The notes below the pieces were generated by a model. That model saw only the letters and a list, made by a program, of their open reading frames with translations. It searched no databases and had not been told where the DNA came from. Shown here piece by piece: positions 9,357 to 30,858 of a stretch of DNA of 64,000 bases. Made by a program: the position numbers and the translations under genes. Within the stretch, counting starts at the first letter, position 1. Each line of letters begins with the position of its first letter. The stretch is from Acidobacteriota bacterium (GTDB lineage: Bacteria; Acidobacteriota; Blastocatellia; Chloracidobacteriales; JADJPF01), in contig JACQZQ010000003.1 in assembly GCA_016213785.1 (NCBI GenBank), positions 62,001 through 126,000 of the forward strand, given 5' to 3'.

Positions 9357-10700
9357 ATGCCTCAAAATTGGACAGAAATTAGAAATACTTTTTCTCCTCA
9401 AGAATCTGTGCCTCCTCATCAATTAGATAAATGGTTTGTTGAACGGTTAAATAGTCCTATAGATACATTTGTTGAGTTACTTTCACCTAATACGAATCCA
9501 GAAAGGCATATTTTAGTAGGACAGCCTGCTAGCGGTAAAAGTTCAGAACTAACAAAACTTGCTGCTGAACTCAAAAAACAACATGATTCTTTGGTTGTAA
9601 GATTTGATTTGGTTAATAACCTAGATGTTGAAAGAGCTAACCCTATTGAAATAATTTTTTTGATGGGTGCAGCAATTTTTAAGTCAGCTACTCTTGAACT
9701 GCCTTCTGCAACTCAGCCTGACAGAAGTTTGTTAGATGAATTACAAAAAGGGCTAGAATCTATTGTTCATACTTACACTGACAATAAAGAATTTAGTTTA
9801 GACTTAAATAAGCTATTAGAAGGATTGGTGGTTTTTAGTGGAGCTACTTTTGCTGGAGCAGTTGGGGCAGTTGCAGTAAAAGGTATCTATGATAAGCTTA
9901 AAGACAACTTTCGTTTTGTATCAAGTACTAATACTCAAATAGCTCGTAAATTAGAAGTAGAACCAAGTGTTGAAGTTTTAATACAGATTCTAAATAAGAT
10001 TATTGATGATGTACATTTTAAGTCAAATCGCTCAGTAGTAGTATTAATGGATGGATTAGACAAATTAAGAGATTTAGAGGTAATTGAGACAAATTTTTTA
10101 AATAATAAATTCTTAAATGGCCCCAAATGTCATATAGTTTATACAGGCCCACTAGATCTTTACTATTCTCCTGCTTTTGGAGAAGTTCGTTCCCGTTTTA
10201 ATATAGTTCCTTTTGCTCATATCAAATTACATGATCGGGGTGACTCAAATTTAACCTATCCTGACGGATTTTCTTTTATGAAAAAAGTTGTGGAGCGTAG
10301 GTTAAATTCCTTACATTTAGAAATGAATGATATAATAGAGCCTATGGCTCTTAATACTATTATTAAAGGGAGCGGCGGGGTTATGCGTGATTTTATTCGT
10401 CTAATTCAAAGTGCTGCCCTACAAGCCCAAGTAGCTAAAAAGGAAAAAATAGAAATACAAGAAGCTGTAAAAGTGCTTAATGAACTTCGTCGCCAATTAA
10501 AGGCTCAGCTTACACCTGATTATGAAGAAATCTTAGATGAAGTTCGGCACACCAATCGACGTGTAGCTGATAAAGACGGGCGTGGAGATAAATGCGATCT
10601 AATGTTACGTAATGATTTAGTCTTAAACTATGTTAATGATGATATTTGGTTTGATGTTCATTCTGCTTTAACCAATGAACCTTGGAAAATCCCTACTTAA
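9357..10700 (+). CDS. P-loop ATPase, first gene of an ATPase/NACHT pair
   Basis: The 447-residue product has a Walker A loop GQPASGKS at about 55-62 and Walker B VVVLMDGLDKL at about 227-237. A GSGGVMRDFIRLI segment near 338-350 resembles the region after the core in AAA/STAND ATPases that read substrate or partner state. Residues about 157-177 are Gly/Ala/Val-rich and hydrophobic and could insert in or lie against a membrane. Start is the ATG after AAAGGGG. The gene lies nine bases ahead of a NACHT ATPase on the same strand, so both proteins are almost certainly made together. I recognise this as a recurrent type of ATPase partner but know no assigned function; a conflict or immune signalling role is inference from the NACHT partner and the position next to tRNA genes. 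Confidence 0.75.
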   Translation: MPQNWTEIRNTFSPQESVPPHQLDKWFVERLNSPIDTFVELLSPNTNPERHILVGQPASGKSSELTKLAAELKKQHDSLVVRFDLVNNLDVERANPIEIIFLMGAAIFKSATLELPSATQPDRSLLDELQKGLESIVHTYTDNKEFSLDLNKLLEGLVVFSGATFAGAVGAVAVKGIYDKLKDNFRFVSSTNTQIARKLEVEPSVEVLIQILNKIIDDVHFKSNRSVVVLMDGLDKLRDLEVIETNFLNNKFLNGPKCHIVYTGPLDLYYSPAFGEVRSRFNIVPFAHIKLHDRGDSNLTYPDGFSFMKKVVERRLNSLHLEMNDIIEPMALNTIIKGSGGVMRDFIRLIQSAALQAQVAKKEKIEIQEAVKVLNELRRQLKAQLTPDYEEILDEVRHTNRRVADKDGRGDKCDLMLRNDLVLNYVNDDIWFDVHSALTNEPWKIPT

Positions 10701-10709
10701 TAGAAATTT

Positions 10710-13040
10710 ATGTCCGAAGAACGTGACCTGTTAGAACAAATAACCCTACTAGAAGCTTATTTGCTATCTGGGCCAAATTGTCTACTTATAGTTGCTACAT
10801 CTGATAATGATATAGAAAAAGGGATTTCTGAGGAAATTAAATTAAGAATAGAAAGAGAAGTTTCTGTAAACACTTTTACTTATAGCTCAAACTCTATTGA
10901 CGAACTAAGCCTATCACAGCAATTAAGCAACCTCCCAAAACCCTCTAGGCGTTCGGTTTTGTTTGTGTTTGGTCTTGATGATTTGCCTAAAGATTCACGA
11001 AATATTGCAATTAACGCTCTAAATTGGGGTAGAGAAACATTAAAGTGGGCTGGTTATTCTGTAGTTCTTTGGGTAAGACTTGGAACACCTCCAGAGTTAG
11101 GAAACCGTGCCCCAGATTTTTTTTCTTGGCGTAGCGATGTTTTTGAATTTGATTTAGCTAAGAACGAAAAAGACCATAAGCAAATATTTGCTCAATTAAG
11201 GCTATTAGCAACATTAGATTCAGATCTAGATGAGCTACGTAAGAATTATTGTAATTACGTAATCCAACAGCAAGATAAGATTGGGTTTCAAGGCTTTGTA
11301 ACAGGTATTGACACAAGGTTTTCTTTAGAACAAGTATTTGTCCCGCTTACTTTATCAAACGTCTATAAACCCCATTTTCCTAGCTTATTAGAGAGTTCTC
11401 CGTTACCTACAATAGAAAATTTACGAACACTTTATGTTCAAGAACTTAAAGAAGAAATTAATCTTAAAGATGCACTCAAACATAAAAAAATAGTTTTATT
11501 GGGGAAATCGGGTTCAGGTAAAACTACTATTTTGAGCTATTTAGCTGTGAGTTTGGCTAAAGATATATTAAATAAACAAAATACACTTGATTTAGAAGTG
11601 CCGCTTTTACCTATCATAGTTTGGCTACCTATTTTGAAAGATGAATTGCAAACCTATCAAACAAGTAATGTAGTGGAATTAGAAAACTTGTTAGTTTTAT
11701 ATTTTGTTAAGCAAAATTTGCAAAATCTATCAAAACTATTTGCTAATGTGTTTGAGAAACAAAGAGCAATGATTTTATTAGATGGGTTTGATGAAATAAC
11801 TTATAAAGAGCAAATAATTTTAACAGGTCTGATTTCTAATTTTATAAAAAAGTATCCTTTAACATACTTAATCGTTACAGGTCATCGATTTGCTTTTAAC
11901 AAAAAAGTATTTTTAGAAGAGTTTGCTATATTAAAAATCAACCCACTAAATAGTTTTACTATAAAACAGTTTGTTCAAAAATGGTCTTTTGCATATGAAT
12001 CAATAAACTCAGTACCTAGTAGAATGGAGGAACAAACAAAACTTCGGGCAAATAGCCTTTTAGTTGCGCTAAATCTACCTAAACTTTTGAGTCTTGCTTA
12101 TAGCCCTATGATGTTGACCCTATTAGTTCTGTTTCGTAGTAGAATAGCTAGGTTACCTATCTATAGCAGTATAAAGCTCTACTATCAAGATTATGTAAGA
12201 GTAATTATTAAAGCTTTTATAATAGATAGTGAAAAATCTATTAGTACATTTTCCTTGCAACAAATAAAATACTTAAAAAATGAAACATTTTTGTTTGAAA
12301 TATTTGCCTATGTTGCTTTTTTAGTGCAAATAGAAAGAAAAAGATTCTTTACTTATAACAAACTAGAAATTAGCATAAAAGATTTTTTAATGGATTATGA
12401 AGGTCTTCAAAATAATGAAGCTGAAATATTAGCTCAAGGTCTTGCAAAAATAGTTACAAAGCATATAAAGCTTATAAACCGATCCTTAAATTTATTTTAC
12501 TTTGTACACACAAACATCCAAAAATATTTAGTATCTTATTATTTAACAACTGTACTTAGTAAGCGTGGTCAAAATTTTATAACTTATTACCAACAACTAA
12601 GAGACTCTATTTACTTACCTCAATGGCAGGAAATTATTGTATTTACAGTCACCAGTTTAAGTAAAGAAGAAGCACAGGATCTTATAAAACAAATCCTTAA
12701 TGCACATAATAATTTTGATAGTTTTTTTGAAAACTTAGCAGAACTAAAACAAAGTGAGTTAGATAGCGAAAAACGAAAAAATATCTGTTACTCTATTGCT
12801 AACCTTTTATTAGCTGGATATTGTGTAAAAGAAGAAGAAATTAATGCCTCCTTAGGCTTAGTAGTCTTGAAAAGAAAAATTCAAGAGGCTCTTGTTAAAC
12901 TATGGTATGAAATACCTAATATCCCATTCTCCCTTCTTGAAACCCCAGAAAGTTATATTACTCACGAGTATATAATAGGGTCACTACATGAACTTTTAAT
13001 AGAATCAGAGGCTTTTGATTTAATAGAAAACAAAAGCTAG
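10710..13040 (+). CDS. NACHT-type STAND ATPase, second gene of the pair
   Basis: The 776-residue product has three parts. Residues 1-150 form an alpha/beta region (LLIVAT near 25, RSVLFVFGLDDLP near 81, WAGYSVVLWVRL near 113) ending in the striking APDFFSWRSDVFEF motif (about 134-147), a degenerate or regulatory NTPase-like domain. Residues about 200-215 hold the SLEQVFVPL lead-in commonly seen before NACHT domains. The NACHT core has Walker A GKSGSGKT (265-272), Walker B MILLDGFDEI (354-363) and a sensor segment LIVTGHRF (387-394). The C-terminal 370 residues are helical without clear TPR, WD or leucine-rich repeats, so no ligand-sensing repeat is recognisable. NACHT ATPases in bacteria act as oligomerising switches, many antiphage; that role here is inference. 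No nuclease or TIR effector is fused. Confidence 0.8.
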   Translation: MSEERDLLEQITLLEAYLLSGPNCLLIVATSDNDIEKGISEEIKLRIEREVSVNTFTYSSNSIDELSLSQQLSNLPKPSRRSVLFVFGLDDLPKDSRNIAINALNWGRETLKWAGYSVVLWVRLGTPPELGNRAPDFFSWRSDVFEFDLAKNEKDHKQIFAQLRLLATLDSDLDELRKNYCNYVIQQQDKIGFQGFVTGIDTRFSLEQVFVPLTLSNVYKPHFPSLLESSPLPTIENLRTLYVQELKEEINLKDALKHKKIVLLGKSGSGKTTILSYLAVSLAKDILNKQNTLDLEVPLLPIIVWLPILKDELQTYQTSNVVELENLLVLYFVKQNLQNLSKLFANVFEKQRAMILLDGFDEITYKEQIILTGLISNFIKKYPLTYLIVTGHRFAFNKKVFLEEFAILKINPLNSFTIKQFVQKWSFAYESINSVPSRMEEQTKLRANSLLVALNLPKLLSLAYSPMMLTLLVLFRSRIARLPIYSSIKLYYQDYVRVIIKAFIIDSEKSISTFSLQQIKYLKNETFLFEIFAYVAFLVQIERKRFFTYNKLEISIKDFLMDYEGLQNNEAEILAQGLAKIVTKHIKLINRSLNLFYFVHTNIQKYLVSYYLTTVLSKRGQNFITYYQQLRDSIYLPQWQEIIVFTVTSLSKEEAQDLIKQILNAHNNFDSFFENLAELKQSELDSEKRKNICYSIANLLLAGYCVKEEEINASLGLVVLKRKIQEALVKLWYEIPNIPFSLLETPESYITHEYIIGSLHELLIESEAFDLIENKS

Positions 13041-13190
13041 TTAACTAAAATACTCAAAATAACTTGGAAATCTTTTTCTATAAGGGTTTGATAGTGTTTT
13101 AAGTTTTACTTATTATCTAAATCATTAGCTGCTTAACCAAGTTTTATAATATATTATTTGTCTATTTGTCTGTCTATGTCAGGGGAAATT

Positions 13191-16100
13191 ATGTCTAGGT
13201 TAAATCTGCGTAACTTATTTTCTATAGATAACTTGCGTAAAAAACTAATAATCTCCTCGCTTTTAATAATGGCTTTTGTTGCTTTAATAATAGGTTTATT
13301 AGCTGCCTATGTAAGAAGTGAAAAGTTTAATCAATTTGTTATTTCGCAAATAAAAGCTAGTGCTCCTTTATATGGACTACGTGTTGAAATAGAAGGCTTT
13401 GGTTTTAGCTTAAATCCCAGCCAAGCAAAATTAAAAAATCTTAAAGTTTTTAATAAAAAAACAGATGAGCTATTACTTGAAACAGAGCAAACAGAGCTAA
13501 ACCTTGAAATTATTGACCTTTATGCCCTTAAACTTAAACGCAAAGTAATATTAAAAGAATTAAATCTTAAAGGCTTAAAGCTTTTTTTAGAGTTTAGCCC
13601 TAATGGTAGAAATAGTCTTATAGGCATAGATGCGCCTAATAAGAATGATTCTAGCAGTTCTAGCACTATTGAAATTGATAGTTCAGTCTTACAAATAACG
13701 ATTACTGATAGTAGTCTATCCTTAAAAGATAATATAAATAGTATTGACCTTAAGCTAGATAAGCTTGGGATAGATGCTAGATTAAAAACTACTACTCAAG
13801 TAGAGGTAAAAGTAAAAGCTGAAGGTGGACTTTCTTATAAAGATTACAACGCTAAAATAGACTCTATTTTAATTGATGGAATATTTAGCGACCAAGGTTT
13901 AGAACTCCAGCCAAGTTTTTTTGTAACCAATTTAGGGAAAATAGAACTCAAAGGAGAGCTAAAAGATTGGAAAAAACTAGAGCATAAGCTAGAAATTCAA
14001 GGCCAAACAGAAAATTTAGATGTTGCTGACCTAAAAATAAAAGGCCAAAGTGCTTTTCAAGGAAAAATTGTTGGTGATAAAAATTCATCTTGCTTAAGTG
14101 GAAACTTAAGTGTAGCTGACCTAAAAGTGGCTGAAAGTCATCTTGTAGGGTTAGAAGTCGTTAATTTAGAACTTATTACAGGGACAAGGTTTGATTTAGC
14201 TACGCAAAAAATTAAACTTGAGTCAATTAATGTAAACCCAATAAATGCAAAAAATATAGAGATTCCTACACTAAAGGGAAGTTTTTCAAATAATAGCTTC
14301 GAGTTTGTTTTACCAAAACTATCAACTAGTTCAATGACTGCACCTAAGAGCCAAATAAGTGGTATTGAGCTAAAAGATATAAACTTAAAGCTTTTGGATA
14401 AAAATTTAGAAACTAGTGTTAAACAAGCTTTAATTGCAAATGTCGTAGTCCCAAACACTAAAGTAAATTCTATAAAACTAGCTCAATTAACTGCTCAAAT
14501 AACAGGCTCTAATTATAATATAAAAAGTGACTTAGCTATATCACAAGCAATATTTAATAATATTCAAGCAGATGAGATTAATAGTAAGCTCTTTTTAGAA
14601 AATAATATCCTTACGCTTTCAAAACTAAGGACAAATTTACTAGGAGGTCAAGCTAGTCTAGATGCTGAAATTGCTTTATCTGGTAAATCAATTTCTCGTT
14701 TGCAAACTAATTTTGAACAAATTAATAGTGCTGAGCTTGGTAAATTATTCCAAAAAGAGCCTTTACCAATTACAGGATTAATTAAAGGTAACAGCGAGTT
14801 AACATGGCCTGGAATTGATTTTCTTCAAGCAAGCGGAGAGCTAAAAGCCAATATTCAAGGGCAAACAACAGATACTGATAAATTACCGCTTACCGCTCAA
14901 CTAATTGCACAAGCCCAAACTGGCAAAATAAATATTAAACCCTTAACTGCTAAATTAGGTAGCACTGATATATTTTTACAAGCAATGGTTTTTCCAAAAA
15001 CTAAGACCATTACAGCAGATTATCAGGTGAAGTCTACTAGTTCTCAGGAGTTATTTTTACTTGCTAAGAACTTAAAATTGCTTGACCAAAAAATTCTAGA
15101 CTATAAAGCTGAACTATCAGGAAACTTAATTGTTAAAGGACAATTAAATGGTACATTTGACAAACTCTTGATTAATAACGCCTTTCAAGCAAGTAATGTG
15201 GGTTTTCAAGGTAATAAATTCCAAAATCTAGTTGGTAAGCTTGAATTAACCCCTGAAGATATTAAGCTTGATATAAGTAATTTATTAGATATTCAAGGTG
15301 GTATGCTTAAGGCTACTTATCAGGGAAAAGCTAATGACCTAGTTAATACAGGTAACTTAAAAGCAGATTTCCAAGATTTTTACTTAGAACTTTATCAACA
15401 GCCTGAAAATAAAGAACTTTTTGTTGGTAAAATTAATGGTAGCGCAGAAATTACTAATCTAAGCGAAAATGGAGAGGCAAGAGCACAACTTAAATTAAAT
15501 AATGTGAAGGTTGGTGGGCAACTCGTTGATTCTGCACAAGTTGAACTTTTTCTAATAAATCAACTTGCTGAACTTACTATTAGTTCTCTAGAACTAGCTT
15601 CGGCTAAAATTAATGGTAAAGGTACTTTAAGCTTAAAAACAAAAGACTTTAGCTTTCAAGGGCAAGTTAAGGATTTAGAACTTGCTAAATTAACTACGGA
15701 TTCAGCATTAGCTGGAATAGTAAATTCTAATCTTCAAATAAATGGTAACATCAATGATCTAAATAATTTACAGCTATCTTTACAAGCTGAGTCTAAAAAT
15801 TTACAAACCCCTACAACTGAATTAGGCCAACTTTCTTTAATTGCTAAGTCTGATAATCAAGGTCGTATTCGTACAGAAATAATTTCCTATTTAATTCCAA
15901 CAAAACCACAAAAAATCTTAGCTATAATTTCCACAAATAAAACGGGTTATCCTATAGAAATAGAGAGCGAGCTATCAGAGTTGGATATTGCACTCTTAAT
16001 GGCTGCTTTTAAGGTTGATACTAAAGGAATGGTTAATAGCAAGCTCTCAGCAAAAATTGCTATTAAAGGTAATATTCTTAATAATAAAGATGAGTTTAGC

Positions 16101-19100
16101 TTGGATAACTTCCAAGGCAATATCCTTCTCACATCTGCTAATGTAAAGCTTTCTGACCAACTACTTAATATTGAAACCCCATGTAATATTACTCTTGAGC
16201 AAGGTAAATTATGTTTAGAGCGAATACGAGTTTTTAGTGATAGCTCAGATATAACTCTTAATGGTCAGCTTGCTTTAACTGGAAATAATACTTTAGAGCT
16301 TGCCACTAATGGCGCTATTAATTTGGCTCAGTTTTCTAGTTTAATCCCTAATAGTTCACTTACTGGGGTTGTGAAAATTGATAGCAAATTAACGGGGACG
16401 GTTAATAAGCCTAATTTATCTGGTAATTTAATGCTTAGCAATTTAGCTTTTTCACGCCAAGATTTACCTATAGAGTTTAGAAATGGTAATGGTTTAATTA
16501 AATTAAATAACGATAAGATTTTTCTAGACAATTTTTCTATAAGGGCAAATGATGGAGAAGTTACAAGTTCTGGACAAGTTAATCTAAAAGGTTTTGATAT
16601 TGCTAATTTACAACTAAAACTTGATGCTAAAGATATAAACTTAATTTATCAATCTGTTGCAATGACTCTAAAAGCAGATGTTTTACTAGAAGGAACTCCA
16701 GCAGATGCAGTAGTTAAAGGAAATGTTAAGGTTTTAGAGGCTATTTATTCAAAACCCTTTGATACAAGCTTATTAAATAGTTCTGTTAGTATTGATGATG
16801 GAACTAAAAGCCTTTTTTCTCCAAGGCTTGATATTAATATTGATGCTAACGAATCCATTATTGTACGTAATCCACAAATTGATACTGTTGCTTCAGCGTC
16901 AATAAGTTTAGGAGGCCAACTTACAAACCCTAATTTAACAGGTCGAATCTCCTTAGAAGGTGGGACTGTTACTCTACGTAAACAACGGTATGATATTACA
17001 CAGGGATTTCTAGATTTACCTGGAGGGATTTTAGTTCCAACCATAGACCTATTAGCAGAAGGCGAAGTTAGCACTTATAGGGTTTTTATTCGTTTTACAG
17101 GGCCAATTGATCAAATAGACTTGGATCTAGAGTCTGAGCCAAACCTGACACGTACAGAAATATTAGCTTTAATTACTACAGGTCGAACCGAGTTAGGTGG
17201 AGGAGAAAACCAAGATTTAACAACTACTGGGCTTAACACAGGGGCTAATTTAATAGCCCAAGAGTTTATTTCTAAGCCCTTTGGCCGTAAAGCAGAACAA
17301 TTTTTAGGGCTAAATCAATTTCAAGTTGATCCAGTAATTCGCCCAAATGAAAACCCTTCTGCTCGTTTAACTTTGGGTAGAGAAATTATCCCTAAGCTTT
17401 CCTTTACTTATTCAACCAGCCTTTCTAGCAGTAAAGACCAAACCATTGCACTTGAATATAAACTCTCAAACCGATTTTCTTCATTGTTTACTTTTACTCA
17501 AGGGGGTGGGACATCTACTAAAGGTAATACTAAAGATAGTGATTATACTTTTGAAATACGTGGGCGAGAGCGCTTTTCACTCAGTGGAAAAGGCAATCTA
17601 GAGAAAAACGCTACACTCTCAACTATGACTAGCTTTAAGCCTTTAAGTTTTCCAAACGCTGAGGTTATTATAGATAAACCAGATGATATAAAGATTAGTA
17701 GTGATACTCTAAGAGATTTATTACCTATTAAGCGACAAACCTTTAGTAGTCCGCTTGCTAGACTTGGACAAGAAAACCTAACTAATTATTTACAAGAAAA
17801 AGGCTATTTTTTTGCTAAAGTTACCACAAGTTGCGAGCCTTTTGATTGCCAAGGCTCAGACTTAAAAGTCCATTATAAAATTGAACCAGGCACTCGTTAT
17901 GAGGTTAGACAAATATCTATTACAGGAACAAACTTAATCTCTCCTGTTAGTGTTATTAGCCAATTACAATCAAAACAGAAAAGCTTTGTTGGCAAGTTCC
18001 CTATTTTAGGTAGTTTACCATTTGTAGGGGGATTAGCTGATGGTATAACCAGCAATGAACGATTACGCCAAGATAGCGACTTAATTCGCCAACAAGTTAT
18101 TGACTTAGGCTATCGTCAAGCTACTGTGTCTTATAACTATAATGTTGATAGCGATGGACGAGGGCTAAGAATAAACTTTAGTGTTCAAGAAGGAGCAATT
18201 AGCCGAATAAGTCAAATAGACTTACTTGGAGTAAATAGCTTAAGTAAAGAAGAATTAAGACAAGAAATCCCTATTAATTTAGGTGATCCTTTTATCCCTT
18301 CTAGACCTCGTGAAGTAGCCCAAAAGTTAGTAGATTATTATGCCCAGCAAGGCTATTTAGATGCAAAAATTGATCTAGAAATAGAACAAATGCCTAATAA
18401 TAATGTTAAGCTAATTTATCAAATTAATGAAGGATCAATAGCAACTGTTGGTAATATTGCATTTATAGGAACTGCTGGAATTAATGAAAAAGCCTTAAGT
18501 CGGTTTATTGAGCTAAAGCTAGGTGATGTAATCACCAATAGAAAGTTACAGCAGTTGCAAAAAGATCTTTATGCTACAGGGAATTTCCGAGAAATCCAAA
18601 TTCTTACAATCCCTGGAATAGGGCTAAACCCAACAGATAGACAGGTTTTAATTAAACTAACTGAAGCTAAACCCTTACTTTTAGTTTATGGGTTTGGATT
18701 TTCTAGCGATGATGGGCCAAGAGGCTCTTTAGAGTTAAGTAATACAGATATTCTAAATAGAATTAATAGCGCATCCTTACGTTTACGCTTAGGTAAACGC
18801 GAGCAAACAGTACAATTACAGTTTACCGATCAACGCCCATTTGGTAGCAGATGGTCAACTACTATTTCGACACTTTATAGCCGACTTACAGAATTAAGTG
18901 CTAATAATCAGCAAATTAGCAATGTTGATCAGACAAACTTAAATAACACAACTAATATTGGGTTAAATCGGTTCTTAACCTTTGTACAAACAGAGCGCCG
19001 CTTAACTAATCAAACTCTAATAAGATTTCGTTATAATTTTGAGATTAATAAACTGACTAATTTAGATGATACTCAATCTAATGCATTTGCTGAGACTTCA

Positions 19101-19820
19101 CGAATTACACGAATTGCTACATTATCTATTGGTGCTGCTTATGATAAGCGTGATAATCCAATTAACCCAACCAAAGGACAGTTTTTAAGCCTTGATTATT
19201 CAATAGCTTCTCGTATATTGGGCGGAAATGAATCCTTTAATAAGATTAGTACTAATTACCAGTACTACGCTAAAACAAAAGATTCTTTCCCTATTCCCTT
19301 TATAAATCGCTCTACAATAGCATTTTCTTCTAGAATAGGCTTAGCCGCACCTTTTGAAATCCGTTCACGCCGAGGGGATGGAATTATTAGAGATTCTGAT
19401 AGGCTTTTACCCTTTAGTGAGCGGTTTCGTAGTGGAGGCGCTACCACCTTGCGAGGTTTTGAATTTGAACAAGCAGGGCCACAGGCTATTACCGAAGTAG
19501 GAAATAATGCTGCACGCTTAATTCCCTTAGGCGGAGATGCTTTAGTAGTGTTTAATTTAGAACTTCGTTATCCAATTTCTAGACGCTTACAGCTAGTCCC
19601 ATTCTATGATTTAGGTAATGTTTTTTCTCGTGTTAAGGATATTAGTTTTCGTAAAATGACTAACACTCTAGGCTTAGGTTTAAGGTTTAATACTCCTATT
19701 GGCCCAATAGGGGTTGATTATGGTTATTTACTTGACCCACAATCCTTTACTACTCCTAATGGTGGAATTTTAAGGCAACGCCAAGGAGTTATACATATTA
19801 AATTTGGGCAGTCTTTCTAA
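13191..19820 (+). CDS. TamB-TamA (Omp85) fusion protein
   Basis: One 2209-codon frame joins two proteins normally encoded separately. The ATG at 13191 follows AGGGGA; an upstream TTG and ATG in frame are less likely. An N-terminal membrane helix (about 22-45) is followed by more than 1200 residues of AsmA/TamB-like beta repeats and a TamB C-terminal (DUF490) domain: GRISLEGGTVTLR, ITQGFLDLPGG, YRVFIRFTGPIDQIDLDL, ILALITTGR and LTLGREIIPKLSFTYS (residues about 1250-1450). From about residue 1500 come POTRA-like modules (NYLQEKGYFFAKV, YRQATVSYNY, LVDYYAQQGYLDAK), then an Omp85 barrel with FRSGGATTLRGFEFEQAGP and a C-terminal Phe as expected for outer-membrane insertion. The polypeptide would therefore span from inner to outer membrane and serve outer-membrane protein or lipid transport and assembly. 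Confidence 0.92.
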   Translation: MSRLNLRNLFSIDNLRKKLIISSLLIMAFVALIIGLLAAYVRSEKFNQFVISQIKASAPLYGLRVEIEGFGFSLNPSQAKLKNLKVFNKKTDELLLETEQTELNLEIIDLYALKLKRKVILKELNLKGLKLFLEFSPNGRNSLIGIDAPNKNDSSSSSTIEIDSSVLQITITDSSLSLKDNINSIDLKLDKLGIDARLKTTTQVEVKVKAEGGLSYKDYNAKIDSILIDGIFSDQGLELQPSFFVTNLGKIELKGELKDWKKLEHKLEIQGQTENLDVADLKIKGQSAFQGKIVGDKNSSCLSGNLSVADLKVAESHLVGLEVVNLELITGTRFDLATQKIKLESINVNPINAKNIEIPTLKGSFSNNSFEFVLPKLSTSSMTAPKSQISGIELKDINLKLLDKNLETSVKQALIANVVVPNTKVNSIKLAQLTAQITGSNYNIKSDLAISQAIFNNIQADEINSKLFLENNILTLSKLRTNLLGGQASLDAEIALSGKSISRLQTNFEQINSAELGKLFQKEPLPITGLIKGNSELTWPGIDFLQASGELKANIQGQTTDTDKLPLTAQLIAQAQTGKINIKPLTAKLGSTDIFLQAMVFPKTKTITADYQVKSTSSQELFLLAKNLKLLDQKILDYKAELSGNLIVKGQLNGTFDKLLINNAFQASNVGFQGNKFQNLVGKLELTPEDIKLDISNLLDIQGGMLKATYQGKANDLVNTGNLKADFQDFYLELYQQPENKELFVGKINGSAEITNLSENGEARAQLKLNNVKVGGQLVDSAQVELFLINQLAELTISSLELASAKINGKGTLSLKTKDFSFQGQVKDLELAKLTTDSALAGIVNSNLQINGNINDLNNLQLSLQAESKNLQTPTTELGQLSLIAKSDNQGRIRTEIISYLIPTKPQKILAIISTNKTGYPIEIESELSELDIALLMAAFKVDTKGMVNSKLSAKIAIKGNILNNKDEFSLDNFQGNILLTSANVKLSDQLLNIETPCNITLEQGKLCLERIRVFSDSSDITLNGQLALTGNNTLELATNGAINLAQFSSLIPNSSLTGVVKIDSKLTGTVNKPNLSGNLMLSNLAFSRQDLPIEFRNGNGLIKLNNDKIFLDNFSIRANDGEVTSSGQVNLKGFDIANLQLKLDAKDINLIYQSVAMTLKADVLLEGTPADAVVKGNVKVLEAIYSKPFDTSLLNSSVSIDDGTKSLFSPRLDINIDANESIIVRNPQIDTVASASISLGGQLTNPNLTGRISLEGGTVTLRKQRYDITQGFLDLPGGILVPTIDLLAEGEVSTYRVFIRFTGPIDQIDLDLESEPNLTRTEILALITTGRTELGGGENQDLTTTGLNTGANLIAQEFISKPFGRKAEQFLGLNQFQVDPVIRPNENPSARLTLGREIIPKLSFTYSTSLSSSKDQTIALEYKLSNRFSSLFTFTQGGGTSTKGNTKDSDYTFEIRGRERFSLSGKGNLEKNATLSTMTSFKPLSFPNAEVIIDKPDDIKISSDTLRDLLPIKRQTFSSPLARLGQENLTNYLQEKGYFFAKVTTSCEPFDCQGSDLKVHYKIEPGTRYEVRQISITGTNLISPVSVISQLQSKQKSFVGKFPILGSLPFVGGLADGITSNERLRQDSDLIRQQVIDLGYRQATVSYNYNVDSDGRGLRINFSVQEGAISRISQIDLLGVNSLSKEELRQEIPINLGDPFIPSRPREVAQKLVDYYAQQGYLDAKIDLEIEQMPNNNVKLIYQINEGSIATVGNIAFIGTAGINEKALSRFIELKLGDVITNRKLQQLQKDLYATGNFREIQILTIPGIGLNPTDRQVLIKLTEAKPLLLVYGFGFSSDDGPRGSLELSNTDILNRINSASLRLRLGKREQTVQLQFTDQRPFGSRWSTTISTLYSRLTELSANNQQISNVDQTNLNNTTNIGLNRFLTFVQTERRLTNQTLIRFRYNFEINKLTNLDDTQSNAFAETSRITRIATLSIGAAYDKRDNPINPTKGQFLSLDYSIASRILGGNESFNKISTNYQYYAKTKDSFPIPFINRSTIAFSSRIGLAAPFEIRSRRGDGIIRDSDRLLPFSERFRSGGATTLRGFEFEQAGPQAITEVGNNAARLIPLGGDALVVFNLELRYPISRRLQLVPFYDLGNVFSRVKDISFRKMTNTLGLGLRFNTPIGPIGVDYGYLLDPQSFTTPNGGILRQRQGVIHIKFGQSF

Positions 19821-19868
19821 GGCTGAAAATTGTCTTTTAAGCAATATCATTATAAGGAATCTAAGATA

Positions 19869-20465
19869 ATGAGTTATAAAGATTTTACAATCAATAGTTT
19901 GAAAGAAAAATTTAAGCTAAATTTTTTTTATGATGTGTGTTTATTCCCAGAAATAGTAGAGTATAAAATCCCAGATTACTTAAAGTTGTTATTGGAGCGA
20001 TATATTTTTTTAGCTTTAGCTATTGATACAGAAAAGGCTCGGTCAGAATACATTATTGCGCCTGTTTTAGGTGAATTAAAATGGAATTATAAAAATAAGA
20101 TTAGTTTGTTTTCCGGTAATGTGTTCAATGTGGATGAAAAATTAGGTTTAACAGGAATTTGTGATTATTTAATATCCCGCACACCTGAACAATATACAAT
20201 TACTGCCCCTATTATTATTTTGGTAGAAGCTAAAAATGACAACATTAAAAGCGGTGTTCCTCAGTGTGTTGCAGAAATGGTTGCAGCTCAAATCTTTAAT
20301 CAAAACCAAAATAATTCTGTAGAAGATATTTATGGAGTTGTGTCTACTGGTACTAACTGGAAATTTCTTAAACTTTCTGGGAGCAATCTATATGTTGATG
20401 TTATTGAGTACTATATAGATACCCCTGAAAAAATCTTGGGCATTTTATCTGCAATAACTAATTAA
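19869..20465 (+). CDS. PD-(D/E)xK nuclease-like protein of unknown function
   Basis: I chose the ATG at 19869 (MSYKDFTINSL), the conserved beginning of this family as I remember it from cyanobacteria and other bacteria; an in-frame start 39 bases earlier gives 13 more residues. The 198-residue product has a restriction-endonuclease-like core: EKARSEYIIAPVLGEL, Asp in LTGICDYLISR, then IILVEAKNDNIKSG as a (D/E)xK strand and QCVAEMVAAQ as the following helix. The last third (GVVSTGTNWKFLKL, YVDVIEYYI) matches the same family. Function is not established; the fold suggests DNA or RNA cleavage, or a decayed structural version. It sits directly upstream of an attC-like hairpin and opposite a restriction-modification pair, so a mobile cassette origin is plausible. 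Confidence 0.75.
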   Translation: MSYKDFTINSLKEKFKLNFFYDVCLFPEIVEYKIPDYLKLLLERYIFLALAIDTEKARSEYIIAPVLGELKWNYKNKISLFSGNVFNVDEKLGLTGICDYLISRTPEQYTITAPIIILVEAKNDNIKSGVPQCVAEMVAAQIFNQNQNNSVEDIYGVVSTGTNWKFLKLSGSNLYVDVIEYYIDTPEKILGILSAITN

Positions 20466-20473
20466 TAGAAAAA

Positions 20474-20534
20474 ATGCCGAACAAGTGTTGTAGCGGACTC
20501 GGGAAGTCAGCTTGCCGTTGAACTTGGCGTTATT
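20474..20534. other. GC-richer imperfect hairpin, attC-like recombination site (tentative)
   Basis: Between the nuclease-like gene and the restriction gene is a short GC-richer sequence with GCCGAACAAG at the left and GAACTTGGCGTTA at the right. CAAGT pairs with ACTTG, and a central AGCgGAC / GTCaGCT stem forms an imperfect foldback. This is the general look of integron attC sites (GCCTAAC...GCGGAC...GCTGAAC...GTTAGGC), but the outer core boxes are degenerate (GCCGAAC and GTTATTT), so it may be a decayed site or a different repeat. Confidence 0.4.
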
Positions 20535-20537
20535 TGC

Positions 20538-21284
20538 TTATTCTTTTTTAGAAACAAAATCTATTAGTTTTGCCCAATCAATTTTATGATCAGTAAGAAA
20601 GTCTCTCATAAACTCTGCTGTCATTTCATTTAGTTTTTTTACATAAGCCTCTTTAAATTTTTCATCTTTTTTCTTTGCTTCAAAGTCGATTGGTTCAATA
20701 AGTTTTCGGTAAAGCTCTAAGTCTCCTGAAATAAACCCCCAAAATTCTTGCCCACAATATTTATAATAAGTTTTGTCTGGGTCAGGGTCTTGTTTAAAAC
20801 TCTGACGTTCTTTGCCATAAATACAACCGTTAACTGCAATTATTTCCATTTCAATATATTGCTTGCGTAGTTCTAGACGAGCTAGCTTAAAGTTATTTTT
20901 CATTTGCGCTAACTGGTCGCTATTTCCCCAATTTGGACCCGATTTAATTCCAACAAGAAAATATTGATTATTTCGCTTAAATTCTAAATCGATACTCTTG
21001 AATTTGGATTTAATACCTTGATCAACATTTTTTGATATAAAGATAGCAAGATTCTCTAACAATCCTCCAAACATAGTTTCTTCTTGGGCTGACAAATAAG
21101 CATCAAGTATCCCTCTAACTAAATCAGCTGGGATTTCTATATTTTTTGCTTTGAATAGATAAGGGTTTTTTCTTCTTAAGACTTCTAATAAGTTTAGTTC
21201 AAGAAGTTTACTTAATCGTTGTTCGTAAAAACGAGATACTACATCATCTGAAAGATACTGATAAATTTTTTGATAATCAAACAT
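20538..21284 (-). CDS. Type II restriction endonuclease, PmeII-like
   Basis: The product (248 residues from the preferred ATG at 21284, one base after the methyltransferase stop; a TTG at 21302 would add six) carries RKNPYLFKAKNI, LVRGILDAYLSAQEE, SIDLEFKRNN and VGIKSGPNWGN segments that I recall from PmeII-type and related restriction enzymes. The IDLEF Asp/Glu followed about 15 residues later by GIKSGPNWG is the PD-(D/E)xK core with Lys retained but Gly at the usual acidic position two before it, a variation seen in some restriction families. It cuts the DNA sequence that its partner methylates; the recognition sequence cannot be read from sequence alone. The tight methylase-then-nuclease order lets modification precede cleavage. 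Confidence 0.8.
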   Translation of the reverse strand: MFDYQKIYQYLSDDVVSRFYEQRLSKLLELNLLEVLRRKNPYLFKAKNIEIPADLVRGILDAYLSAQEETMFGGLLENLAIFISKNVDQGIKSKFKSIDLEFKRNNQYFLVGIKSGPNWGNSDQLAQMKNNFKLARLELRKQYIEMEIIAVNGCIYGKERQSFKQDPDPDKTYYKYCGQEFWGFISGDLELYRKLIEPIDFEAKKKDEKFKEAYVKKLNEMTAEFMRDFLTDHKIDWAKLIDFVSKKE

Positions 21285-21285
21285 A

Positions 21286-22128
21286 TTAAATTGTAGACTC
21301 AAATAAACTAAGTTGGGATGATTCTTTTTCTAACAAAGATTTTGCTAACTGAAAATATTGCTCTGAAATTTCAATGCCTAAATAATGTCGGGACAACTGT
21401 ATTGCTGCTAAAGCAGTTGTTCCTGAGCCTAAAAATGGGTCTAAAATAATATCTCCAGGTTGGCTAAAAAGATTAATAAACCATTTAGGTAGATCTATTG
21501 GAAAAGCTGCACTATGGGCTTTATTAGCACATTCTGTTGCTAAGTAAAGTACATTTGTAGGGTAAACTTTGTCTCTTCCAACCCAATTACTAACATTCTT
21601 TCCAAACCCACTACCGACTTTAGAATTATCTCTAAGCTTATCTGTTTCACTAAGATTTTTTAGCCTAGCTTTTGCCCAATCTCCTACAGGAACCATCACA
21701 GAATCTTGATACATATTAAATTGCTTGCTTTTATTAAATTGTAGTAATCTTTCCCAGGCATCCCTAAAACGATTAGGCCATTTTCCAGGATGACAATTTT
21801 TCTTATGCCAGATAAATTCCTCTGTCCATAACCACCCCTGCTTTCTCATAGCCAGAATTAGTTCTAAAACATAAGTATGCCGCTGTGCATTAACTACCTT
21901 TTCTTTAATATTAATTATAAAAGTGCCTGTTGGTTTAAGTACTCTAAAAAGCTGTTCAGAAATTGGTAAAAACCATTCTACATAGGCATCAGGAGCAATT
22001 CCTCCATAACTATTAGCTCGTTGATCTGCATAAGGTGGAGAGGTAATTATTAGATCTACAAAAGAGTTAGGGCAACTAGACAATATTTCTAAACAATCTC
22101 CTTGATAAATAGAATCTTTGAGTAACAT
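21286..22128 (-). CDS. Site-specific DNA methyltransferase (SPPY type, probably N4-cytosine)
   Basis: The 280-residue enzyme transfers a methyl group from SAM to an exocyclic amino group within its DNA target. The catalytic motif IV is TSPPYAD (about residues 29-35), typical of N4-cytosine enzymes, although some N6-adenine enzymes share it. The SAM-binding motif I DPFLGSGTT lies near the C-terminus, and the order catalytic-then-SAM defines the beta class. LFRVLKPTGTFIINIKE and GIEISEQYFQLA are the expected flanking motifs. A clean AGGAG ribosome site precedes the ATG. It is the first gene of a two-gene restriction-modification operon and protects host DNA from the nuclease that follows. Confidence 0.92.
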   Translation of the reverse strand: MLLKDSIYQGDCLEILSSCPNSFVDLIITSPPYADQRANSYGGIAPDAYVEWFLPISEQLFRVLKPTGTFIINIKEKVVNAQRHTYVLELILAMRKQGWLWTEEFIWHKKNCHPGKWPNRFRDAWERLLQFNKSKQFNMYQDSVMVPVGDWAKARLKNLSETDKLRDNSKVGSGFGKNVSNWVGRDKVYPTNVLYLATECANKAHSAAFPIDLPKWFINLFSQPGDIILDPFLGSGTTALAAIQLSRHYLGIEISEQYFQLAKSLLEKESSQLSLFESTI

Positions 22129-27054: not shown

Positions 27055-30000
27055 TTAACGCGGGTAAAATCCTGGAGCAAGCATTTCAGTTATTTGAGGA
27101 ATATTCTTAATTTTTTGACTAGACATCCAATATTCTGCAAGTCTTATAAGCTCTTTACCCTCATCACCATTAATTAATTGGCCTAGTCTATAATTAGTAG
27201 CGGCTTGATAAAGTGCCATGTCTATATCTTGAAAATTCTTTTTAGCCAGTTTAAGAAAATCGATTGCTTTATCTTTTTGATTTCTATTAAATGCTATAGC
27301 AGCAAGTAAAAGATAAGAAAAAGCATTTCCTGATGTAACTTTTTCTTTAAGTAATTTCCAAGCGTCTTGCTCGGCCATTTTTAATAAATTTTTAGGCTCT
27401 TTAGAGTTTTTAATACAAGCTAGAGCGCTTCTAGCACGAAGATGAAGCATTTCAACAACAGAGTTTTGTACTTCTAAAAGCAACCCTTTTTTCATTGGCG
27501 ACCATTGAGAATTAATTAAATTTAATGCATCTTCTGCTTTATTATCATAGATTTCTACTTGCGCTTGCCCAAGAAGTGCCCAATAATGCTGAAGGTGAAA
27601 ACCGGTTGCTGTCCATTTTGAAATTGCTATTTTAATTTGATTTCTTGCTTCTGTTGGATTATCTGCAATTAGTGGTGGCACATAGGAAAGAGCCGTTCCT
27701 AAGCCAGTAATAGCATATATATCACCTCTTTCTTCAGCTTGTTTAATAAGCCCAGGTAAGCGTTCACATAATCTATTTAATTCTCCTAGGTAAAGTAGAG
27801 CACGAGAAGAAAAAAAGTGAGAGCTATCAAGTTCCCAAGGCACTCCCTTACATTGTTGGCTTAAAACAACTACAGCTTGCTCTAGATTTTGATAAGCTCT
27901 TAGCCATTTGCCGCTTAAAAAATAAGCTATCCCACTCATCAAATAGAACATGCCATTAGTATGAGGGTTATTAATAGACAATATTATTTTTTTAGCTTTT
28001 TCTAAAAGCATTTCAGTGCGTTTTCTTGTTTTTGTTCCTCCTATGGATGAAAAACCCGCTTCTAAAATTATGGCTCTTGCAACTCTATAAGGTTCGCCTG
28101 TAGAAAGTGCTAAGAGCATATGTTTACACTGAAAATTTGCTCCTCGGATTGTATCAACTACTGCTAAACCTATGGCTGCCGACCAACAAGTATCAATCTT
28201 TAATAATTCTAAGCGAGGGATTTCGCTTTCTTTTCTTGGAGTAAATTCTAAACCTCTAAGCCTAATCTGCAAACGTTTTAGTAATAATGGAATTAAGGCA
28301 CGAAGCGGGCTACTAGCAAGTTTTAGGTTTACTGAACTAAGAACTTTACTTAATACTGATAACCCTTCATCAATTAAGCCACCAAATAAGAATTGTTCTG
28401 CTGCACGGCGTTTAAGTTCTAAAGCATCTTCTTTAGAAGAGTATTCTGCGGCTGCTAGAAAAGCTTTGGCTGCTTCTGTGCTACGACCTGCATTTACTAA
28501 AGCATTACCAAGCTTTATTTCTACTGAAGCGATTTGATAGGCTTGTTGCTGGCTAGTAAAAAGTCCTAATACTTGTTTATAGAGTTCTATTGCGTGGTCA
28601 AAAGCTAGGGCTTGTGCTGCTTGGTCGGCTCCTTTAAGAGCATACTCTGCTACTTTTTCTTTTTCTCCTGCTCCAGAAAAATGCATTGCTAAAGACTCAG
28701 GATCGGCTTGACCGCTTTGTTCTAACGCTATTGCAAGGCTGTTATGGAGTTCTTTACGTTGGGCACTTGTAAAATTTTTAAGTAGCGTTTCTCTAACACG
28801 ATCATGATAGATTTCTAGAAATTCAACTTGTTCTCTCTCTCTACGCCGAATCATATGATTAGAGCGTAAGAAAGCAAGCGCTGTTTGTTCATCGTTTTCT
28901 AAACTTGCTGCTTGTTTAGCAATACTACGAATTAAAGGCTGACCTGCTAAGGCAAGAATTTGTAATAACCGCTGAGCGCTCATAGGCAGTTGAGCCACAC
29001 GGGTTAAAATAACTTCTTCTAAGGTTAGGTCTGTAGAAATATCTGTAATATTACTAGAGTCAATTTGTGAGTACCGTATAAGCTCATCAATAAAAAAAGG
29101 GTTTCCTCCAGACTCTCTAACCATTTTTTCCATTTGCTCAGAAGAAATATTTTGTTGTGTCTCAGAAAGTGTAGAAATTAGTTCTGTTGCTTCTTCACTA
29201 GAAAGTTGTTCTACATAAATCTTCTTGAGATCAACATTATCAGAGTGTTGCAAGGAGAAAAGCTTTTTGAGTATTAAACTGCTTTCTTCTTCTTCACTAC
29301 GATAAGTAATAAGTAATGTTATTGCTAGTGGATTGGGTGGGCTAATTAATTCTGCAAGTAAAGCAATACTATCTAAATCACCCCATTGAAGATCGTCTAT
29401 AAATAAAACCAAGGGTTTTTGCCTTGCTAGTTGATTAAGTAATTCTCTTAGAGCAATAAAAGCTCTACGCCTAAGTTCTTGAAAATCAGGAAAATCCAGT
29501 ACAGGCCGTTCAATACTAGCAATTGCTGTTACTTGCATTAAAACAGGAAAAAGTCTTGCTATAAGTAAAATATCCTCAGGCAGTAAGCTTTGAATTTCTT
29601 TACTAGGTAAAGCTTTTAGGTATTGGCTAAGATTATCAACCACACTATCAAATGCTTTATATGGAACAGATTCTTGCTCATAGCAACGGCCAGATAAAAT
29701 TATAAGGTTTTTTTCTTTGTGTTTAATATTAGTTAAAAAATGGCGGACTAAAGCTGTTTTTCCCATTCCAGAATGCCCAAGAACATAGCAGATTACAGTC
29801 TTTCCTGTTTTAGCAATTTGAAAAGCTTCATAAAGCTGCTTTAAGTGAGAATCGCGCCCTACTAAAGCAGTTGGACTAGAGCCAAGTGTAATAACATTAT
29901 GGCCTTGGGTTTTAGGCTTTATTCCTAGTGATAAAAGGATTTCTCGGCTATTTGGACGATCTTGGATATTACGTTTTAGTAATTGATGGCATAAATCAAC

Positions 30001-30858
30001 TAAATCTTGTGGAAGGTCTTTAGTTAATCTATTTGGTATTGTAGGGTCATAACGTAGTTTTTCCCTTAGTACATTGCCAAATATGCTATCAAAAGGGAGT
30101 TCACCTGTTAAAGCTTCAAAGAGCATTACTCCAACGCTATACCAATCACTAGATTCTGACAAATTTTTACCAAGACATTGCTCAGGAGACATATAATCAG
30201 GTGTACCAAAAAACTCTTGCTGATTTTTACTCTCAGAGACTTGTGTTACTAAACCAAAATCTAATATAACTAAACGCTCTTCATTAGTGATTAATACATT
30301 AGATGGTTTTAAGTCACAATGTAGCTTTTCATTGTTATGTAAGGCATAAACACCTGAAACAAGTTGTTTTAATGCTGAGCGCAAGCGTTCTATATTAAGT
30401 AGTTCATTAGATAAACTAGTGGGTTTAGTTATAAATTTTGGTGGTGAATTATCTTCTTTTTCTAGGGTTTGGCGATTATCGCTTTTATTAGAAAAAGTAT
30501 TTGTTCCAATTTTTTCTGTACGAGGATTGTCTGAATTAGCATTTAATCCGCGAACATACTCAGAAAAACTTACTCCAGGAACTAATTCCATAGTAAAAAA
30601 CCACAGGTCTTTTTCTGATAAAAGCTCATAAAGAGTAACTAAATTAGGATGGGTGATATCAGCTAGAGAGCGGAATTCTTGCTTAAATCGGTAAATAGAG
30701 CTAGCTTCAGTTTTGTTTAAGAGTTTAAGCGCGACCTCTGAGAGTCGTTCTTGGTCATAAACTTGGTAGACAACACCAAAGCCGCCAACACCTAAACGGC
30801 GACGAACTAAAAAACGTTTTGTGCCAGTAAACTCTGTTCCTATGGGTGTGCTTTGCAT
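27055..30858 (-). CDS. Ser/Thr protein kinase fused to AAA ATPase and TPR-like repeats
   Basis: The 1267-residue regulator begins with a Hanks-type kinase (about 14-310): glycine loop GVGGFG, Lys45, catalytic loop HCDLKPSN (His-Cys-Asp in place of the usual His-Arg-Asp, which marks non-RD kinases not needing activation-loop phosphorylation), DFG at about 200 and GTPDYMSPEQ. A 50-residue hydrophilic insertion (about 103-150) interrupts it. A VGRDSHLKQL segment leads into an AAA_16-type ATPase with Walker A GHSGMGKT (361-368) and Walker B LVLFIDDLQWGD. The remaining half is TPR-like helical repeats. This PknK-like plan couples a signal, ATP switching and partner binding to phosphorylation. It stands alone, transcribed away from tRNA-Asn's region. 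Confidence 0.93.
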   Translation of the reverse strand: MQSTPIGTEFTGTKRFLVRRRLGVGGFGVVYQVYDQERLSEVALKLLNKTEASSIYRFKQEFRSLADITHPNLVTLYELLSEKDLWFFTMELVPGVSFSEYVRGLNANSDNPRTEKIGTNTFSNKSDNRQTLEKEDNSPPKFITKPTSLSNELLNIERLRSALKQLVSGVYALHNNEKLHCDLKPSNVLITNEERLVILDFGLVTQVSESKNQQEFFGTPDYMSPEQCLGKNLSESSDWYSVGVMLFEALTGELPFDSIFGNVLREKLRYDPTIPNRLTKDLPQDLVDLCHQLLKRNIQDRPNSREILLSLGIKPKTQGHNVITLGSSPTALVGRDSHLKQLYEAFQIAKTGKTVICYVLGHSGMGKTALVRHFLTNIKHKEKNLIILSGRCYEQESVPYKAFDSVVDNLSQYLKALPSKEIQSLLPEDILLIARLFPVLMQVTAIASIERPVLDFPDFQELRRRAFIALRELLNQLARQKPLVLFIDDLQWGDLDSIALLAELISPPNPLAITLLITYRSEEEESSLILKKLFSLQHSDNVDLKKIYVEQLSSEEATELISTLSETQQNISSEQMEKMVRESGGNPFFIDELIRYSQIDSSNITDISTDLTLEEVILTRVAQLPMSAQRLLQILALAGQPLIRSIAKQAASLENDEQTALAFLRSNHMIRRREREQVEFLEIYHDRVRETLLKNFTSAQRKELHNSLAIALEQSGQADPESLAMHFSGAGEKEKVAEYALKGADQAAQALAFDHAIELYKQVLGLFTSQQQAYQIASVEIKLGNALVNAGRSTEAAKAFLAAAEYSSKEDALELKRRAAEQFLFGGLIDEGLSVLSKVLSSVNLKLASSPLRALIPLLLKRLQIRLRGLEFTPRKESEIPRLELLKIDTCWSAAIGLAVVDTIRGANFQCKHMLLALSTGEPYRVARAIILEAGFSSIGGTKTRKRTEMLLEKAKKIILSINNPHTNGMFYLMSGIAYFLSGKWLRAYQNLEQAVVVLSQQCKGVPWELDSSHFFSSRALLYLGELNRLCERLPGLIKQAEERGDIYAITGLGTALSYVPPLIADNPTEARNQIKIAISKWTATGFHLQHYWALLGQAQVEIYDNKAEDALNLINSQWSPMKKGLLLEVQNSVVEMLHLRARSALACIKNSKEPKNLLKMAEQDAWKLLKEKVTSGNAFSYLLLAAIAFNRNQKDKAIDFLKLAKKNFQDIDMALYQAATNYRLGQLINGDEGKELIRLAEYWMSSQKIKNIPQITEMLAPGFYPR

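What the first reader, a model, noticed from the sequence alone, without database searches (positions are those of the whole stretch)
13191..19820. TamB and TamA/BamA fused in one 2209-residue polypeptide
TamB (inner-membrane anchor, long beta groove) and TamA (POTRA plus Omp85 barrel) are normally separate proteins that interact. Here the frame is continuous from the N-terminal helix to the terminal Phe of the barrel. One chain would bridge both membranes and fixes the stoichiometry at 1:1, supporting the model in which TamB's C-terminus meets TamA POTRA domains.
Basis: partly seen in the sequence, partly recalled or inferred. Interest (0 to 1): 0.65.

Follow-up and report, generated by a model that had tools for sequence, protein, structure and literature searches.

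The report
TamB–Omp85 fusion: single-chain TAM
This Acidobacteriota (Blastocatellia) genome encodes in one 2209-residue chain what E. coli makes as two proteins, the periplasm-spanning groove TamB and its outer-membrane barrel partner; the fusion is real, conserved and selected, probably arose more than once in the phylum, and in some relatives is the only TamB left.

Summary
One frame (ATG 13191, preceded by AGGGG, to TAA 19820; 2209 aa) encodes an inner-membrane anchor, a full TamB β-groove with its own conserved C-terminal strand, a ~25-residue variable linker, four POTRA domains and a 16-strand Omp85 barrel. It is not an assembly error: the same architecture is one frame in ten other Blastocatellia genomes from several projects (two more are cut by contig ends), with purifying selection through the linker. 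The Omp85 half is neither TamA nor canonical BamA. It belongs to the Acidobacteriota TamB-partner Omp85s, which when separate have seven POTRAs and a signal peptide; the fusion lacks the signal peptide and three distal POTRAs. Trees of both halves agree on one origin for the Blastocatellia fusions. At least 18 other Acidobacteriota genomes carry similar fusions that do not form one clade with them (AU p=5e-88 and 3e-5), so fusion arose more than once, or was re-made after fission. In one family the fused gene is the only TamB; the window genome also keeps a separate tamB–omp85 pair and a canonical bamA. No natural TamB–Omp85 fusion was found in the papers searched. Function as a single-chain TAM is inferred, not shown.

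The parts
13191..19820 (+). tamB-omp85 fusion gene, 2209 aa, one frame, stop TAA
   Evidence: homologous single frames
13181..13185 (+). Shine-Dalgarno-like AGGGG, 5 bases before ATG 13191 (preferred to the in-frame TTG 13158)
   Evidence: sequence read directly
13224..13313 (+). N-terminal hydrophobic helix, residues 12-41 (inner-membrane signal anchor)
   Evidence: predicted helix 12-41; hydropathy maximum 3.09
13377..17138 (+). TamB beta-groove, residues about 63-1316, near-continuous strands
   Evidence: AF2 models; profile match to E. coli TamB of 9xdc, E 6e-12
16533..17504 (+). Pfam TamB (PF04357) domain, residues 1115-1438
17316..17582 (+). TamB C-terminal strands, residues 1376-1464, ending FEIRGRERFSL; last strand 1452-1464 has the highest mean conservation of the segments compared (0.85)
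17583..17660 (+). Linker, residues 1465-1490; variable in sequence, nearly constant in length, no signal-peptide-like stretch
17661..18668 (+). Four POTRA domains, residues 1491-1567, 1569-1668, 1670-1748, 1750-1826
   Evidence: own profile; E. coli BamA control gives 5; AF2 model
17832..17849 (+). Cysteines C1548 and C1553 in POTRA1, invariant in the Blastocatellia fusions aligned
18675..19817 (+). Omp85 barrel, residues 1829-2209, 16 strands, terminal Phe
19449..19460 (+). LRGF motif (residues 2087-2090) at the position of the Omp85 loop-6 (V/I)RGF signature
   Evidence: L2087, R2088, G2089, F2090 invariant; loop-6 assignment from knowledge of the family

Best explanation
It is a single-chain translocation and assembly module: TamB and its Omp85 partner as one polypeptide. 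Most likely the chain is exported by Sec through its N-terminal helix, which stays in the inner membrane as an anchor. The beta-groove then spans the periplasm, and the C-terminal barrel is inserted in the outer membrane by the separate canonical BAM. TamB's last strand, kept intact just before the linker, is proposed to pair in cis with the first barrel strand, as TamB and TamA pair in trans in E. coli. The tether would replace docking of TamB on the distal POTRAs, which would explain why the fused form lacks them. The groove would pass phospholipid and/or nascent barrel proteins to the barrel, as proposed for TAM. Shown here: gene structure, domains, conservation, selection, absence of the distal POTRAs and signal peptide, and sole-TamB status in some genomes. 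Inferred: export, cis hybrid barrel, transport function, absence of cleavage.
For: Single frame with both domains, also in ten other genomes. dN/dS 0.11-0.17 over the whole gene and 0.06-0.29 in the linker for four pairs of relatives. Linker of near-constant length without a signal peptide: best hydropathy 0.3-1.5, against 2.3-3.0 in separate Omp85 N-termini, so the barrel half could not be exported alone in the usual way. Highest mean conservation in TamB's last strand (0.85, 7 of 13 invariant), lowest in the linker (0.47, 1 of 36). POTRA count 4 in fused, 7 in every separate TamB-adjacent Omp85 searched, 5 in canonical BamA and in E. coli BamA as control. In family f7, eight genomes (G022, G026, G030, G037, G041, G047, G050, G054; G041 and G054 split by contig ends) have one TamB match, in the fused gene. 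AF2 model of 1050-2209: mean pLDDT 82, four POTRAs and a 16-strand barrel, closest to TamA (8us1, Z 27.1, rmsd 4.8 over 522) and BamA (9mge, Z 25.3, rmsd 8.1 over 647). Model of 1-1100: a helix followed by near-continuous strands. Profile matches both chains of the solved TamAB complex, 9xdc_A and 9xdc_B. Literature: TamB's last strand pairs with TamA strand 1 in cryo-EM (PMC12800296); TamA POTRA1 is needed for TamB binding (PMC4525385).
Against: No protein, localisation or activity data exist here. In the window genome the fused copy coexists with an unfused pair and has the longest branch of the fused clade (0.78 in the Omp85 tree, 1.32 in the TamB tree), so its role there may be specialised or relaxed. 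The strands at the end of TamB and the linker have moderate to low confidence in the model, so the cis hybrid barrel is not demonstrated; no coordinates were available to measure it.
Confidence: 0.75

Rival explanations
1. The fused chain is made but cut in the linker after export, giving an ordinary two-chain TAM; the fusion only guarantees co-expression and 1:1 supply.
For: The linker is the most variable stretch and lies outside both folded parts; nothing here shows an intact mature chain.
Against: Linker length is nearly constant (53-60 residues from the RxRxF motif to LLP) and the linker is under purifying selection (dN/dS 0.06-0.29); no shared cleavage-like motif is seen. Absence of the distal POTRAs fits a tether that stays.
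Confidence: 0.2
2. Lipid bridge only: the fused protein is a covalent inner-to-outer membrane phospholipid conduit of the AsmA/Vps13 type, and the barrel is an anchor and exit, not a folding catalyst.
For: A near-continuous beta-groove with a signal anchor and structural matches, all weak, to LPD-3 (Z 8.9), Vps13 N-terminus (Z 7.8) and TamB of 9xdc (Z 7.8). A barrel whose seam is permanently filled by TamB in cis would be less free for client proteins.
Against: The barrel is strongly conserved (106 of 381 columns invariant) including the loop-6 motif. PMC12800296 reports that both seam states occur in E. coli TamAB.
Confidence: 0.3
3. In the window genome the fused copy is a redundant or relaxed paralogue, and the unfused pair on contig C7 is the working TAM.
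For: Both are present; the window copy is the longest branch of its clade.
Against: The frame is intact over 6.6 kb with the family's invariant motifs; relatives with only the fused gene show that the architecture can carry the role.
Confidence: 0.15
4. Assembly or sequencing artefact joining two genes.
For: The window genome is a draft of 132 contigs.
Against: The same junction in ten other genomes from independent projects, with near-constant linker length and codon-level constraint.
Confidence: 0.01

Closest known systems
TamAB (TAM) of Enterobacteriaceae, e.g. E. coli TamA/TamB (PDB 9xdc)
   Same: Signal anchor, beta-groove, C-terminal strands and an Omp85 barrel with POTRAs; both halves match the two chains of 9xdc by profile.
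   Different: One chain in the order TamB then Omp85 (E. coli genes are tamA then tamB); 4 POTRAs instead of 3; Omp85 half not of the TamA family.
Acidobacteriota tamB-omp85 gene pair (TamB with a 'duplicated BamA' of up to seven POTRAs, Heinz et al. 2015, PMC4494059)
   Same: Same TamB and Omp85 families; the fused clade lies inside the Blastocatellia pairs in both trees.
   Different: Two genes, signal peptide on the Omp85, seven POTRAs. That paper mentions no fusion.
Borrelia BAM-TAM (BamA with TamB, no TamA; PMC13382580, PMC11361582)
   Same: A BamA-type Omp85 partners TamB; a hybrid barrel completed by TamB strands is modelled.
   Different: Two separate proteins; BamA with five POTRAs (from the papers).
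TamB-Omp85 fusions of other Acidobacteriota found here (L130-L136, L138-L141, L143-L149)
   Same: One frame with TamB then POTRA+barrel.
   Different: Five POTRAs in the four counted; not in one clade with the window's fusions.

Membership tests
TamB (PF04357) | TamB C-terminal domain above the curated cut-off | tested here: met
   127.8 bits against 22.4
TamB (PF04357) | N-terminal signal anchor to the inner membrane | tested here: met
   Predicted helix 12-41 and hydropathy 3.09; absence of cleavage not tested
TamB (PF04357) | Long beta-groove body | tested here: met
   AF2 models of 1-1100 and 1050-2209, mean pLDDT 81 and 82; 9xdc_B profile match
TamB (PF04357) | C-terminal strand resembling an outer-membrane-protein beta-signal | tested here: met
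   FEIRGRERFSL at 1454-1464, with invariant E, R, G, R, R, F, L; separate TamBs end there
TamB (PF04357) | Separate polypeptide ending at that strand | tested here: not met
   The frame continues into Omp85
TamA (NF047950 / PF17243) | TamA equivalog score and TamA-type POTRA1 | tested here: not met
   87.8 bits against a cut-off of 625; no PF17243 match
TamA (NF047950 / PF17243) | Three POTRA domains | tested here: not met
   Four
Canonical BamA (TIGR03303) | BamA equivalog score | tested here: not met
   258.9 bits against a cut-off of 297.15
Canonical BamA (TIGR03303) | Five POTRAs and grouping with the genome's own BamA | tested here: not met
   Four POTRAs; separate clade from canonical BamA
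Omp85 superfamily (PF01103) | POTRA repeats followed by a 16-strand barrel | tested here: met
   164 bits; model with 16 strands; Z 27.1 to TamA 8us1
Translocation and assembly module (system) | TamB acting with its Omp85 partner in outer-membrane biogenesis | not testable with these tools
   Both parts are present in cis; function needs experiments

The most novel reading that the evidence does not exclude
The fused protein is a self-contained, permanently assembled trans-envelope machine whose TamB strand completes its own barrel seam in cis. Acidobacteriota arrived at this design more than once, each time dispensing with distal POTRAs that the separate partner carries, which would mark those POTRAs as mainly a TamB docking platform.
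Probability: 0.4. Interest if true: 0.78.

Novelty: new variant of a known kind. Interest (0 to 1): 0.62.

Why it matters
How TamB works with its outer-membrane partner, whether the two stay together, and which POTRAs matter are open questions. A natural covalent TAM, conserved and in some genomes the only TamB, suggests that permanent 1:1 association is compatible with function and gives a single gene to purify, delete and image. The comparison of fused (4-5 POTRAs) with unfused (7 POTRAs) relatives is a natural deletion experiment on what the distal POTRAs do.

Tried and rejected
The 'open_frame_aa' column of the genome searches can bridge a stop: G382, G286 and G307 looked fused but are two genes in one frame separated by a stop, so every fusion counted here was re-read from DNA. 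The one genome-contig scan returned Acidobacteriota and one unfused pair in candidate division CSSED10-310, but it depends on two short patterns, so distribution outside the phylum is unknown. G001, of the same genus, shows no fused gene and no TamB-domain match, but it is an 87% complete draft of 840 contigs. In alignment A2 separate TamB C-termini were placed poorly against the fused ones; the end point was taken from local alignment instead. Some BamA barrels align from model residue 359, which might reflect TamB strands at the seam, but no coordinates were available, so it is not used as evidence. Fold matches of residues 1-1100 are weak and mixed.
Full report
OBSERVATION. The frame from ATG 13191 to TAA 19820 encodes 2209 residues without a stop. 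AGGGG at 13181-13185 supports ATG 13191 as the start over the in-frame TTG at 13158. Pfam places TamB at 1115-1438, POTRA repeats, and Omp85 at 1859-2209. The finding is confirmed as written, including the junction region.

NOT AN ARTEFACT. Ten other genomes of the same class have the same architecture as one open frame, re-read from their DNA (L007-L016, plus a second copy in G034, L040). Record titles name such loci as Blastocatellia or Acidobacteria MAGs from different projects. Two more genomes (G041, G054) have the gene cut by contig ends; in G041 the upstream contig runs through the linker into POTRA1. In a census of 162 genomes of the class, 153 have TamB; the fused ones are G000, G002, G014, G022, G025, G026, G030, G034, G037, G047 and G050, with G041 and G054 as split cases. 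For four pairs of relatives dN/dS is 0.11-0.17 over the whole gene and 0.06-0.29 within the linker, so the linker is translated and constrained (the linker values rest on about 45 codons each).

ANATOMY. Residues 12-41 form a predicted hydrophobic helix, followed by near-continuous strands (AF2 of 1-1100, mean pLDDT 81). The AF2 model of 1050-2209 (mean pLDDT 82, pTM 0.58) continues the groove, then shows moderate-confidence C-terminal TamB strands, a low-confidence linker, four POTRAs and a 16-strand barrel. The barrel part is closest to TamA 8us1 (Z 27.1, rmsd 4.8 over 522, model 521-1160) and BamA 9mge (Z 25.3, rmsd 8.1 over 647, model 441-1158). A profile of the family matches both chains of the solved TamAB complex 9xdc. 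TamB's own end is intact: separate TamBs stop at ...FxIRxRxRF, while the fused protein reads FEIRGRERFSL and goes on. Conservation is highest in this last strand (0.85; 7 of 13 invariant) and lowest in the linker (0.47; 1 of 36). The distance from the strand motif to the first POTRA's LLP motif is nearly constant (53-60 residues). The linker has no signal-peptide-like stretch (maximum hydropathy 0.3-1.5, against 2.3-3.0 at the N-termini of separate Omp85s), so an internally started barrel half could not be exported by Sec in the usual way.

WHAT THE OMP85 HALF IS. The genome has three Omp85 genes over the Pfam cut-off: the fusion, a partner next to a second tamB on contig C7, and one on C96. 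NCBIfam gives the fusion 258.9 bits for BamA (cut-off 297) and 87.8 for TamA (cut-off 625), while the C7 and C96 proteins pass as BamA. In trees the C96 type (canonical BamA) is a separate clade from the TamB partners, fused or not. A POTRA profile built here counts 5 in E. coli BamA (correct) and 5 in C96, 7 in every separate TamB-adjacent Omp85 searched (in two of them, L137 and L142, the first only weakly), 4 in the four window-type fusions and 5 in the four other fusions counted. It finds only 2 of the 3 known POTRAs of E. coli TamA, so it can miss divergent ones. Relative to the separate partners the fused proteins therefore lack the signal peptide and the two or three distal POTRAs. In E. 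coli, TamA POTRA1 is required for TamB binding (PMC4525385); a covalent tether would make such a docking domain dispensable. That link is inference.

EVOLUTION. TamB and Omp85 halves give agreeing trees in which the Blastocatellia fusions are one clade (support 100) inside the Blastocatellia separate pairs, next to the family f4 (Pyrinomonadaceae-like) pairs (99 and 98). In family f7, eight genomes with the fused gene have no separate TamB match; in f1 and f3 the fused and unfused forms coexist. A simple account is an old duplication of the pair, fusion of one copy, and differential loss; transfer between families is not excluded. In a sample of 396 Acidobacteriota genomes many TamB frames exceed 2000 aa; of twenty fetched outside the class, eighteen are genuine single frames with TamB and Omp85 and two are not. 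Forcing all fused proteins into one clade is rejected for the Omp85 half (p 5e-88) and the TamB half (p 3e-5). Long branches are present, and fission followed by re-fusion would give the same pattern; different POTRA numbers favour separate events.

MECHANISM. Best supported: a single-chain TAM, anchored in the inner membrane, grooved across the periplasm and ending in an outer-membrane barrel inserted by canonical BAM. The cryo-EM structure of E. coli TamAB shows TamB's last strand paired with TamA strand 1 in one of two states (PMC12800296), and a similar completion is modelled for Borrelia BamA-TamB (PMC13382580). The high conservation of that strand in the fusion, although it is no longer a C-terminus, suggests the same pairing in cis, the linker then leading back to the first POTRA. 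Whether the machine moves phospholipid, folds barrels or both is not decided here.

NOVELTY. Full-text searches and targeted reading of the main evolutionary and structural papers found no natural TamB-Omp85 fusion. The library lacks most subscription papers and bioRxiv, and domain-architecture databases could not be consulted, so this is absence from what was searched. It is a new variant of a known kind.

Noticed in passing
window 9357-13040 and 19830-22128: The fusion gene is flanked by defence-like genes: a NACHT NTPase (10710-13040), a PD-(D/E)XK-like 211-aa protein (19830-20465) and a type II restriction-modification pair with an EcoO109I-like nuclease (20538-21302) and a DNA methylase (21286-22128). 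In several family f7 relatives the fused gene instead lies beside a selB-like gene.
   Followed up: partly
L040 and L044 (genome G034, Bin_42R): One genome carries two different fused TamB-Omp85 genes.
   Followed up: partly
L064, L127, L137, L142: In several Acidobacteriota the separate tamB and omp85 genes lie in the same frame with only a stop codon and little else between them, a plausible starting point for fusion.
   Followed up: partly
window 17832-17849 (C1548/C1553); L048, L064: A cysteine pair in POTRA1 is invariant in the Blastocatellia fusions and has a counterpart in the f4-type separate Omp85s, but not in the other separate partners aligned.
   Followed up: partly
window 27055-30858 and 45272-47956: A Ser/Thr kinase-AAA ATPase protein (1267 aa) and an 894-aa protein made mainly of HEAT repeats.
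   Followed up: no
L060: A candidate division CSSED10-310 genome has an adjacent tamB-omp85 pair in the same order, unfused.
   Followed up: partly
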